From: Bacteroidota bacterium
GTDB lineage: Bacteria; Bacteroidota; Bacteroidia; Flavobacteriales; Flavobacteriaceae
Direction of reading: 5' to 3'
Assembly: GCA_021793375.1 (NCBI GenBank)
Contig: JAJYSY010000005.1
Coordinates: 1-64,000, forward strand
DNA: 64,000 nt
In this document: positions 4,712 to 7,535 of the stretch, one piece after another
Layout of the letters: every line of letters begins with the position of its first letter
How positions within the stretch are numbered: the first letter of the stretch is position 1
Program-made: the position numbers and the translations under genes
Notes under the pieces: generated by a model
The model's database searches: none
Told to the model about the DNA's origin: nothing
What the model saw: the letters and a program-made list of their open reading frames with translations, nothing else

Positions 4712-5299
4712 TTATTTAAATCGATAATGTCCTATGATTTTATAATTAAATAAAATATCTTCTAATACTTGACCTTTACCTATATTATGAACAATTAACA
4801 ATCGATTTTCGTCTTTTGATTTGTATTTACTGACTATTCCAATATGTGTCATTCCATTACCTAAATCCCAGGTAACCATATCTCCAGGCTTATAATCTTT
4901 AGCGTATTCACTTATAGGAAGAGAAGCTTTTTGACGTTCAAAGTAAACCATTAAATTAGGAACACGTCGGTGATCTATGTTTGTATCTGGACGCTGTAAT
5001 CCCCATATATTCGGGTATTCTTCAAAATGATTTGTCATATCTTTATGTACTAATTTTTGGAGGTCAACTCCTACTTTTCGATAAGCTCTAATCACCACAT
5101 CTGTACAAACCCCACGATTAGCCGGCACATCTCCATTAGGATAAGCTATACTAAAATAAGACGGGTCATATTTCACCTCTTGATATATTAAGGTAGCAGC
5201 CGAATCGGCCAATTCTTTATAAAAAGAGGTTTGTGCCTTAACAGAAGAAAAGGCTAATAGGACCAAAACGAAAAACAACAGACCTTTATTCACAAACAT
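4712..5299 (-). CDS. DUF1287 family exported protein (NlpC/P60-like candidate hydrolase)
   Basis: 195 residues with an N-terminal signal peptide ending near SSVKAQ, so it is probably periplasmic. It carries the DUF1287 hallmarks: DVPANRGVCTDVVIRAYR (candidate nucleophile Cys), GDMVTWDL, MTHIGIVS (candidate His) and the end IIGHYRFK. The Cys-then-His order with GDxVxW resembles papain-like NlpC/P60 hydrolases, so a peptidoglycan role is plausible but unproven. It lies 68 bases downstream of a small lipoprotein gene on the same strand but has its own -7 box. No enzymatic function is established for the family as far as I know. Confidence 0.78.
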   Translation of the reverse strand: MFVNKGLLFFVLVLLAFSSVKAQTSFYKELADSAATLIYQEVKYDPSYFSIAYPNGDVPANRGVCTDVVIRAYRKVGVDLQKLVHKDMTNHFEEYPNIWGLQRPDTNIDHRRVPNLMVYFERQKASLPISEYAKDYKPGDMVTWDLGNGMTHIGIVSKYKSKDENRLLIVHNIGKGQVLEDILFNYKIIGHYRFK

Positions 5300-5367: not shown

Positions 5368-5829
5368 TCATGGTTCAATACGAACACTTTTTTTAAATTC
5401 AAAACCACCATCTTCTTTTTGTTGGGCAATTTGGATCAACTTATCGTTGTCCCGAAAAGAGTGTTTTCCTTGTCTTACACAAATCACCAAATCATCAAAC
5501 ACAAACATCTCACCCTCTAAAAACACAGTATCCTTTTTATGCTCAAAAGTATGTCTTTGTCCTTTTATTTCACATCCCAACACTTGTTGGTCTTTATAAT
5601 ATAATCTTTTGATTGTTAGAATAACCGGAAGAGAATCTCCTTCTTCCACCCATTCAAAAGTATCAAAATTTCCGGGTTCCTTAAATTCTGATTTTGGCCC
5701 GTGAACAAGCTCCCAGCGGGTTATTTTTTCATATTTTACATCATACTTAAAACCATTCATTTTAAGCTTTGAGGAAGAACAACTCATAAAAAGTAAAACA
5801 ATAATTCCTGAATAAATATATTTTTTCAT
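5368..5829 (-). CDS. Small lipoprotein, candidate partner or immunity protein of the Tae4-like amidase
   Basis: 153 residues with a lipoprotein signal peptide (GIIVLLFMSC; lipidated Cys17). The residues after Cys are SSSKL, without the acidic surface-export signal, so it should face the periplasm. The rest looks beta-rich and I recognise no family. Its ATG overlaps the stop of the upstream amidase gene by 4 bases (5826-5829), so the two are co-translated. Tight coupling to a predicted peptidoglycan amidase, together with periplasmic placement, makes an immunity role an attractive inference, but no similarity to Tai4 immunity proteins is evident. Confidence 0.7.
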   Translation of the reverse strand: MKKYIYSGIIVLLFMSCSSSKLKMNGFKYDVKYEKITRWELVHGPKSEFKEPGNFDTFEWVEEGDSLPVILTIKRLYYKDQQVLGCEIKGQRHTFEHKKDTVFLEGEMFVFDDLVICVRQGKHSFRDNDKLIQIAQQKEDGGFEFKKSVRIEP

Positions 5830-7343
5830 GGTTTCTTAGTTTGAGAGTTCCCAGAAATAAATTTCTTTAGCATGTCCAAAATAACATCTTGAAAAAGATC
5901 AGCATGTCCGCTGGCAGTAAATCCTGTTCCTGATTTAGGTAACATAATATAAATTCCCCATTTTCCTTTTATAGCATTGAGATATTCTTCTTGAGTTTTA
6001 TTTTTTAAATGAATTGGCTCTACATTAGGATATGCTTTTTTCATATAAGCCAACATTGCAGATACATTCAAAACATAATTTTTATTATCTCCACCTTTTT
6101 GAGTTTTTTGATTTCCATTATCATCATAAAAAACAGGAATTGGTTGATCACTATAATTCAAACCTCGAGACACTCTGATTGTACAAGCATTTTTCGCTAA
6201 CATTTCCCCTCCAGTATCAGGATTTTTAGGAAAAGCTGCATAAAAATCATTTAAAGAAGGTAAAGAAGAATAAGTTTCAGGATCAACTTGTGAATAATCA
6301 TTTATATTAAAAACATCACCACTATCATTAGGTGGAACCTCGGATCCAAACCAATTATCATAAAGCTCTACTCCTCCATCAGATTCATTCTTCAAAACTT
6401 CTACTTGCCATATAGCTAACTCTATGCTTTCCTCACTAAAATTATTTCTTATTAAGTAATTAAATATATTATTTTTTAAATCTTCATTTGAAGGAAAACT
6501 CCAAAATTCTTTTAACTCTACCGGTAAATCATAATAGAAATCTGGCTTATCTTTTGGGGTTGTTGGCATTTCCTCAACTGAACCAGAGCTTCCTCCTCCT
6601 GAGCCTGAACCTCCTCCACCTCCGGGAAGTCCTGATAGGTCTCCATCTCCCGGGATACTCCCGTCATCTCCTCCCCAATTCCAACCTCCTCCATTATCTC
6701 CATCACCGTTTCCTGAGTCTCCTGAATCTCCAGAGCTTCCTCCTCCAGAACTTTCTTCACATCCTGTAGTTTCTTCTACATAAGAAAGCACTACTTCCTC
6801 ACCACTTTCCAAAACCAATCCATGAACATGAACAAATCTAAAGCAAGGTATATCTCCTTCATTTGTTGTATATGTTAAGTTTCCTTGATTCGTATTTTCC
6901 GCTTTAAAACCTAATAAATTAACTTTATCTGTTAAAGGTATATTATTACCTTGATTAAAGCTCTCTCTTTCCTTTTCTGTAAAATCATATTCAAAAATCA
7001 TCATCACATCCCCTTCAGGATTAGTTACTAAATTTAAAAAACGAGAAGGATTTTCCGGATCTTTTAATATAAAAGTATAACTTTTTTCCTCTCCTTCATG
7101 TTGAATTACAGTAGCCTCTTCAATATCAATTATAAAATTTGTCCCTGCTAAATAATCAAAAGAGGTATTTTTACCTGTGTTATTTACTTGAATATTTAAT
7201 TGTTCTTTAAGTTGATAAGCATTTTCTATCTCCTCAAAAGGTATGGTTTGAGAGCTTAAATTTGTATATTCATTTTCTACATTTCCTCCTTCCTCATACA
7301 AATCATCTGTTTGACAACTGAAAAGAAATAACATAAAAATCAT
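5826..7343 (-). CDS. Lipoprotein with C-terminal Tae4-like peptidoglycan amidase domain
   Basis: 505 residues from ATG 7343. The lipobox is FLFSC (Cys10), followed by QTDDL, which resembles the acidic export signal of surface lipoproteins in Bacteroidota. Residues about 25-195 form an unknown N-terminal region. Residues 198-255 are a Gly/Ser/Asp-rich linker. The C-terminal part has NACTIRVSRGLNYS (Cys387), KNYVLNVSAMLAYMKK, and GFTASGHADLF (His480, Asp482). This order matches Tae4, a type VI secretion amidase of the NlpC/P60 superfamily that cleaves peptide stems. No type VI secretion gene is nearby. The signal peptide from this ATG is unusually short and uncharged; in-frame codons upstream of it encode a better one but have no start codon (see findings). 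The downstream lipoprotein gene overlaps by 4 bases. Confidence 0.72.
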   Translation of the reverse strand: MIFMLFLFSCQTDDLYEEGGNVENEYTNLSSQTIPFEEIENAYQLKEQLNIQVNNTGKNTSFDYLAGTNFIIDIEEATVIQHEGEEKSYTFILKDPENPSRFLNLVTNPEGDVMMIFEYDFTEKERESFNQGNNIPLTDKVNLLGFKAENTNQGNLTYTTNEGDIPCFRFVHVHGLVLESGEEVVLSYVEETTGCEESSGGGSSGDSGDSGNGDGDNGGGWNWGGDDGSIPGDGDLSGLPGGGGGSGSGGGSSGSVEEMPTTPKDKPDFYYDLPVELKEFWSFPSNEDLKNNIFNYLIRNNFSEESIELAIWQVEVLKNESDGGVELYDNWFGSEVPPNDSGDVFNINDYSQVDPETYSSLPSLNDFYAAFPKNPDTGGEMLAKNACTIRVSRGLNYSDQPIPVFYDDNGNQKTQKGGDNKNYVLNVSAMLAYMKKAYPNVEPIHLKNKTQEEYLNAIKGKWGIYIMLPKSGTGFTASGHADLFQDVILDMLKKFISGNSQTKKP

Positions 7344-7390
7344 TATACTTCCGTATAATAGCCTTTTAGTAGAAAATAAATAATTTATAA

Positions 7391-7418
7391 GTTGGTGGTT
7401 GGTGATTGGTGATTGGTG
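7391..7418 (-). repeat. Heptanucleotide tandem repeat, 4 units, upstream of the amidase gene
   Basis: Read on the minus strand, four perfect-length units of CACCAAY follow each other (CACCAAT, CACCAAT, CACCAAC, CACCAAC). They lie between a possible ATG at 7434-7432 and the first good signal-peptide codons of the amidase gene. A change of one unit shifts the reading frame. Confidence 0.85.
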
Positions 7419-7535
7419 GTTTAAAACTGTTCATTTTACATTAAGTTTAAAGATTAATTGTCTGAACTTAATAAAAATTAACGCATTAACCTAATAATAA
7501 CATAAAAATTATTTTCAACTTATTATTTCTTCTTT

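What the first reader, a model, noticed from the sequence alone, without database searches (positions are those of the whole stretch)
7341..7434. Possible phase-variation switch: 7-base repeat between an ATG and the amidase signal peptide
On the minus strand, ATG 7434-7432 is followed by four CACCAAY units (7418-7391). In the present frame this ORF stops after 22 codons (TAA 7368-7366). In the amidase frame the codons just upstream of ATG 7343 read KRLLYGSIMIFMLFLFSC to the lipobox, a far better signal peptide than the 9 uncharged residues left when starting at 7343, yet that frame has no start codon before a TGA. Deleting one 7-base unit (or adding two) puts ATG 7434 in frame through the repeat into this signal peptide, giving a 37-residue signal with Cys38. 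Four units would be an OFF or low state. This is the classical design of slipped-strand phase variation, here controlling a predicted surface toxin.
Basis: seen in the sequence. Interest (0 to 1): 0.88.

Follow-up and report, generated by a model that had tools for sequence, protein, structure and literature searches.

The report
Repeat switch on surface toxin lipoprotein
A short repeated DNA stretch sits between the start codon and the body of a bacterial surface-toxin gene so that a change in repeat number would turn the gene on or off, and about twenty relatives of this gene carry their own, different repeats at the same spot, which makes a genetic on/off switch the likeliest reading.

Summary
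In detail: on the minus strand ATG 7434, four CACCAAY heptamers (7418-7391), an out-of-frame stop (7368-7366), and signal-peptide-like codons without a start codon upstream of ATG 7343. The array is the only one in the held genome, but it is short and impure, and similar heptamers in relatives can be plain intergenic repeats; alone it would be weak. Homologs decide it. The gene belongs to an apparently undescribed flavobacterial family: lipobox, CQKDD-type surface-export signal, shared N-terminal domain, Gly-rich linker, variable C-terminal toxin domains (here a Tae4 amidase), small ORF downstream. At the same spot, between ATG and hydrophobic core, 20 of 137 family genes carry non-triplet tandem repeats (2, 4, 5, 7, 8, 14 or 22 nt) with many unrelated units in 15 genera; control lipoproteins in the same loci have 0 of 93. 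Two tandem paralogs differ by exactly two repeat units. Nineteen of the 20 are out of frame, yet their downstream frames are open. Slipped-strand phase variation is the best explanation for the family and likely for this locus. Switching was not observed, no second allele of this array was available, and the excess of OFF alleles is unexplained.

The parts
7432..7434 (-). Proposed start codon ATG of the phase-variable reading frame (out of frame with the toxin in this assembly)
   Evidence: inferred start, no transcript data
7391..7418 (-). Tandem heptamer array, 4 x CACCAAY
7366..7368 (-). TAA that ends the reading from ATG 7434 after 22 codons (present OFF state)
7317..7376 (-). Signal-peptide coding stretch in the toxin frame (FSTKRLLYGSIMIFMLFLFS), followed by lipobox Cys at 7316-7314; no start codon upstream in frame
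   Evidence: compared with 69 family genes
7341..7343 (-). ATG of the mechanical ORF (9 residues before Cys); unlikely to be an efficient start of a lipoprotein
5826..7343 (-). Lipoprotein polymorphic toxin: CQTDD export-signal-like motif, family N-terminal domain (about 6650-7316), Gly-rich linker, C-terminal Tae4 amidase domain
5368..5829 (-). Small lipoprotein gene overlapping the toxin stop by 4 nt, candidate immunity protein
   Evidence: no family match, role inferred from position

Best explanation
A slipped-strand phase-variation switch on a surface-displayed polymorphic toxin lipoprotein. Translation starts at ATG 7434 and runs through the heptamer array, which codes for the hydrophilic n-region of the signal peptide. 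When the number of units keeps the frame, the ribosome enters the K-R / hydrophobic core / lipobox and makes a lipoprotein carrying a C-terminal Tae4-type amidase. When it does not (as with the four units here), translation stops after 22 codons and the toxin is OFF. Unit loss or gain by replication slippage flips the state heritably and reversibly. Shown: anatomy, frames, family-wide recurrence of such repeats at this position, copy-number difference between paralogs. Inferred: use of ATG 7434, slippage in this array, surface display, toxicity, and the advantage (stochastic display of a costly weapon).
For: (1) Anatomy and frames. (2) The family was defined by a protein profile, with no regard to repeats, and extended at order level. 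Non-triplet tandem repeats within 140 nt upstream of the lipobox Cys: 16 of 98 genes, then 4 of 39 in an out-of-sample set. Control lipoproteins in the same loci: 0 of 93 (Fisher p = 5e-5 under the same lipobox rule). Strict rule (at least 3 perfect units of 4-11 nt): family 16/137, other gene starts in the same loci 4/860, p = 2e-11. (3) In 1.14 Mb around family genes, 15 of 19 genuine arrays fall in the 1.2% of bases that are family signal regions; the other four lie 150-364 nt upstream of family Cys codons. (4) Units are unrelated in sequence (CAACACG, CTCAAAC, AACACCG, CAAACGC, AAATTCC, ACAAA, ACAA, AAAC, AC, a 14-mer and others) in 15 genera (genus labels), so they arose repeatedly at one position. 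(5) Tandem paralogs L113a/L113b, identical from the repeat into the mature coding sequence, differ by exactly two ACAAA units; copies within that genus have 2, 4, 6, 6 and 7 units. (6) Repeat-bearing genes are nearly all out of frame, yet 19 of 20 have open downstream frames. (7) L111 (about 10 CAACACG units) is in frame and reads ATG-repeat-signal peptide-lipobox. (8) ATG 7343 would give a signal peptide shorter than any of 69 ordinary-start family genes. (9) L240, another Tae4-bearing member, has five AAAC units after its ATG.
Against: The window array has only four units in two variants and would slip slowly; under the strict rule the window gene does not count. No second allele of this array was seen. 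CACCAAY arrays of four or more units occur in 6 of 299 family genomes, elsewhere at intergenic sites without a link to surface genes, so the heptamer could be an ordinary intergenic repeat. Only 1 of 20 repeat-bearing genes is in frame, fewer than the one third expected if states were random (binomial worked by hand, about 0.003), so long-term silencing in part of the family is possible. In the second set the array enrichment was weaker (3 inside, 5 outside). No promoter or transcript data.
Confidence: 0.72

Rival explanations
1. Ordinary intergenic heptamer repeat that happens to lie upstream of a gene translated from ATG 7343; no switch at this locus.
For: CACCAAY arrays in other genomes of the family lie between genes, including beside a housekeeping gene. 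The window array is short and impure.
Against: It is the only such array in this genome and lies where 19 other family genes carry their own repeats. ATG 7343 leaves a 9-residue uncharged signal peptide, outside the range of the family, while KR plus hydrophobic core are encoded just upstream of it.
Confidence: 0.13
2. Irreversibly silenced gene (pseudogene) whose start region has decayed; the repeat is a relic.
For: The present frame is OFF, and 19 of 20 repeat-bearing family genes are OFF, more than random frames predict. Member L146 also has a frameshift in its linker.
Against: The 500-codon ORF is intact with the Tae4 Cys and His motifs conserved, and 19 of 20 repeat-bearing genes have open frames. 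Decay does not create repeats of different sequence at one position in many genera.
Confidence: 0.1
3. The repeat acts at the promoter or RNA level (spacing, protein binding, leader peptide), not by reading frame.
For: A few family members have repeats ahead of the start codon (L101 CTAT x6.5, L140 TG x8.5), as in the Haemophilus hmw promoters (PMC2651432).
Against: Most arrays follow the ATG and end 41-74 nt before the lipobox Cys, inside the n-region coding stretch, with periods that are not multiples of three.
Confidence: 0.05

Closest known systems
neuO of Escherichia coli K1 (heptanucleotide AAGACTC in the 5' coding region; PMC13001214)
   Same: Heptamer tandem repeat in the 5' coding region; unit number sets the reading frame; most sequenced genomes are OFF (65.6% of 64)
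   Different: neuO is a prophage-borne capsule O-acetyltransferase with 3-53 units; here a flavobacterial lipoprotein toxin with four impure units and no allele series at this locus
Haemophilus influenzae SSR contingency loci (PMC2651432)
   Same: Non-triplet SSRs (mono- to octanucleotide) at surface-structure genes, slipped-strand switching
   Different: There many unrelated genes of one species share mainly tetranucleotide repeats; here one toxin-lipoprotein family uses many different units across genera
Polymorphic toxin systems, incl. TANFOR toxins of Bacteroidetes (PMC3482391, PMC7073777)
   Same: Shared N-terminal domain, interchangeable C-terminal toxin domains (Tae4, AHH, Tox-MPTase3, M23, GH19), small downstream ORF
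   Different: Different, unnamed N-terminal domain with lipobox and surface-export signal; TANFOR toxins are proposed T9SS substrates; no phase variation in the passages read
Bacteroidetes surface lipoproteins with LES (PMC5080379)
   Same: Family consensus C-Q-K-D-D equals the Capnocytophaga signal C-X-K-(D/E)2-X
   Different: The window protein has CQTDD, nearer the alternative Q-A-(D/E)2 form; localization not tested
Tae4 T6SS amidase effectors (PF14113; PDB 4hfk, 4hff, 4j30)
   Same: NAC-x-IR and GH motifs, taken as the catalytic Cys and His, are aligned
   Different: Fused to a lipoprotein; no T6SS sheath gene (PF05943) found in this 88.9% complete genome

Membership tests
SSR (slipped-strand) translational phase-variable gene | Tandem repeat, period not a multiple of three, between start codon and coding body | tested here: met
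SSR (slipped-strand) translational phase-variable gene | A change in unit number joins start codon and coding frame | tested here: met
   91-nt offset between the frames and an open toxin frame back to the array,
SSR (slipped-strand) translational phase-variable gene | Unit number varies between strains or cells | tested here: inconclusive
   No second allele of this array available; paralogs elsewhere in the family differ by exactly two units
SSR (slipped-strand) translational phase-variable gene | Reversible switching of expression | not testable with these tools
   needs populations or reporters
Polymorphic toxin system | Conserved N-terminal domain with varying C-terminal toxin domains | tested here: met
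   (L240 and L241: 84% identical over 288 N-terminal residues, different C-terminal halves)
Polymorphic toxin system | Immunity gene directly downstream | tested here: inconclusive
   111 of 121 family genes have a 60-350 aa ORF starting at -35 to +160 nt, median 165 aa; no baseline computed, protection not tested
Surface lipoprotein (LES) | Lipobox plus C-X-K-(D/E)2 or Q-A-(D/E)2 | tested here: inconclusive
   Family consensus CQKDD, 75 of 99 with at least two acidic residues in the scored stretch; the window protein has CQTDD, an imperfect match
Tae4 amidase | Pfam PF14113 above cut-off with catalytic Cys/His motifs | tested here: met
   58.8 bits vs cut-off 27; alignment
Tae4 amidase | Delivered as a T6SS effector | tested here: not met
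   PF05943 not found in the genome, which is 88.9% complete; the protein has a lipoprotein N-terminus instead

The most novel reading that the evidence does not exclude
A widespread, undescribed family of surface-anchored polymorphic toxins in Flavobacteriales is a set of contingency loci: simple repeats arise again and again, with different units, in the signal-peptide n-region, so populations display these weapons stochastically and keep them mostly OFF.
Probability: 0.6. Interest if true: 0.8.

Novelty: new variant of a known kind. Interest (0 to 1): 0.72.

Why it matters
From background knowledge, phase variation in Bacteroidota is mostly described as DNA inversion. A family-wide repeat switch placed in the signal peptide of polymorphic toxins would add a second route and tie contingency-locus biology to interbacterial weapons. 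It makes testable why such toxins are mostly silent in sequenced genomes, and it warns that automatic annotation will truncate or misplace the starts of these genes.

Tried and rejected
Common-intergenic-repeat reading: tested on 299 genomes; such arrays exist at intergenic sites but rarely; kept as a rival. Orthologous locus in the only other genome of the genus: toxin not found, hflX is followed by an aspartokinase-like ORF, so no allele series for this array. Scans of named genome contigs with the window protein and with a paralog found no relative, and the broad alignment had no usable block, so no organism names. Plasmid search: no match. Pfam, NCBIfam and PHROGs name no N-terminal domain. 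Literature searches found no report of this family or of repeat switching in it; the library is open-access only. A promoter was sought by eye only, inconclusive. Structure prediction with an alignment was not run because loci from the genome search are not on its list of allowed inputs.

Full report
Observation. The minus strand carries ATG 7434-7432, four CACCAAY units at 7418-7391, and TAA 7368-7366 in the ATG frame after 22 codons. In the toxin frame the stretch before ATG 7343 reads FSTKRLLYGSI followed by MIFMLFLFSC, with no ATG, GTG or TTG back to TGA 7433. The 91-nt offset between the two ATGs means that one unit fewer, or two more, joins the frames. The array is the only match in the window and in the held 2.34-Mb genome, even with 3 mismatches in 21 nt. 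It is short and impure: two T-type and two C-type units.

The gene. ORF 7343-5826 is a lipoprotein: CQTDD at the lipobox Cys, an N-terminal domain without any Pfam or NCBIfam name, a Gly-rich linker, and a C-terminal Tae4 amidase domain (58.8 bits against a cut-off of 27), aligned to solved Tae4 structures over the NAC-x-IR and GH motifs. A 153-codon lipoprotein gene overlaps its stop by four bases. No T6SS sheath gene was found in this 88.9% complete genome, so the amidase is probably not a T6SS cargo here.

The family. A protein search of 397 genomes found six distant relatives of the N-terminal half. A profile made from them found members in 94 of 397 genomes; a wider profile found more at order level, including a second taxonomic family. 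C-terminal halves are diverse: of 125 scanned, Tae4 in 5, Tox-MPTase3 in 3, AHH nuclease in 3, DUF6973 in 3, M23 in 2, GH19 in 2. Paralogs L240 and L241 are 84% identical over 288 N-terminal residues but have different C-terminal halves. 111 of 121 genes are followed at once by a small ORF, median 165 aa, though no baseline was computed. The consensus at the Cys is C-Q-K-D-D, which fits the surface-export signal defined in Capnocytophaga (C-X-K-(D/E)2-X, PMC5080379). This is the architecture of a surface-anchored polymorphic toxin system.

Repeats at the start of the family genes. The genes were collected without regard to repeats. In the first set 16 of 98 genes have a non-triplet tandem repeat within 140 nt upstream of the lipobox Cys; in an independent set 4 of 39. 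Control lipoprotein frames in the same loci: 0 of 93 (Fisher p = 5e-5 with the same lipobox rule); Markov-resampled regions give 0-3 per 100. With a strict rule of at least three perfect units of 4-11 nt, family 16/137, other gene starts in the same loci 4/860, p = 2e-11; the window itself fails this strict rule. In 1.14 Mb, 15 of 19 genuine arrays lie in the 1.2% of bases that are family signal regions, and the other four are 150-364 nt upstream of family Cys codons. In the second set the contrast is weaker, 3 inside and 5 outside, nominal P = 1e-4. Units differ from gene to gene (CAACACG, CTCAAAC, AACACCG, CAAACGC, AAATTCC, CAAACAA, ACAAA, ACAA, AAAC, AACACCAA, AC, a 14-mer, a 22-mer) and come from 15 genera by the handles. 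Most arrays end 41-74 nt before the Cys, that is in the n-region just ahead of the hydrophobic core. Homopolymer tracts (T9 in L127, A7 in L202, C8 in L236) stand in the same stretch of genes without an in-frame start.

Copy number and state. Tandem paralogs in one genome (L113a, L113b) are identical from the end of the repeat into the mature coding sequence compared, and differ by exactly two ACAAA units; copies in the genus have 2, 4, 6, 6 and 7 units. Only L111 of the 20 repeat-bearing genes has an in-frame ATG 14-50 codons before the Cys, against 100 of 118 genes without such repeats (counted). Nineteen of the 20 show no stop or frameshift downstream as far as the contig goes (L074 and L091 run off contig ends; L146 is frameshifted). 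Open but out-of-frame genes are what a reversible switch predicts. The excess of OFF over the two thirds expected from random frames (P about 0.003, worked by hand) is unexplained: selection for OFF in sampled clones, or partial permanent silencing.

Back to the window. The window gene sits in this pattern: repeat in the right place, OFF frame, intact ORF, and an ATG 7343 start that would leave 9 residues before Cys, against a minimum of 14 and a median of 24 in 69 ordinary family genes. Its array is among the weakest. CACCAAY arrays also exist as plain intergenic repeats in a few relatives, and I could find no second allele: the one sister genome lacks the gene. So the switch is well supported for the family, likely for this locus, and not yet observed in action in either.

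Novelty. Frame switching by heptamers is known (neuO, PMC13001214; Haemophilus SSR loci, PMC2651432). Polymorphic toxins of Bacteroidetes are known (PMC3482391, PMC7073777). I found no report of this lipoprotein family or of repeat-driven switching of such toxins; the library is limited to open-access papers. I rate it a new variant of a known kind.

Noticed in passing
family genes, e.g. L135, L113, L152, L228 (signal regions): 19 of 20 repeat-bearing genes are out of frame, more than the two thirds expected by chance; of the two wrong frames one looked commoner than the other (rough count).
   Followed up: partly
L101:5630-5655, L140:6046-6062: Repeats (CTAT x6.5, TG x8.5) about 150-167 nt upstream of the lipobox Cys, ahead of the start codon: possible promoter-located switches in the same family.
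   Followed up: no
L113 (two tandem genes): Tandem paralogs with identical N-terminal coding starts, different small downstream ORFs and a two-unit repeat difference.
   Followed up: partly
L203-L220 (second taxonomic family of the order): Family members there have conserved signal peptides and CRN/CRT motifs but almost no repeats, so the switch looks limited to some lineages.
   Followed up: partly
L146, Gly-rich linker: A frameshift in the linker separates N- and C-terminal halves, in a gene that also has two heptamer arrays at its start.
   Followed up: no
window 4712-5299: DUF1287 gene downstream of the toxin and small lipoprotein genes, same strand; relation to the toxin unknown.
   Followed up: no
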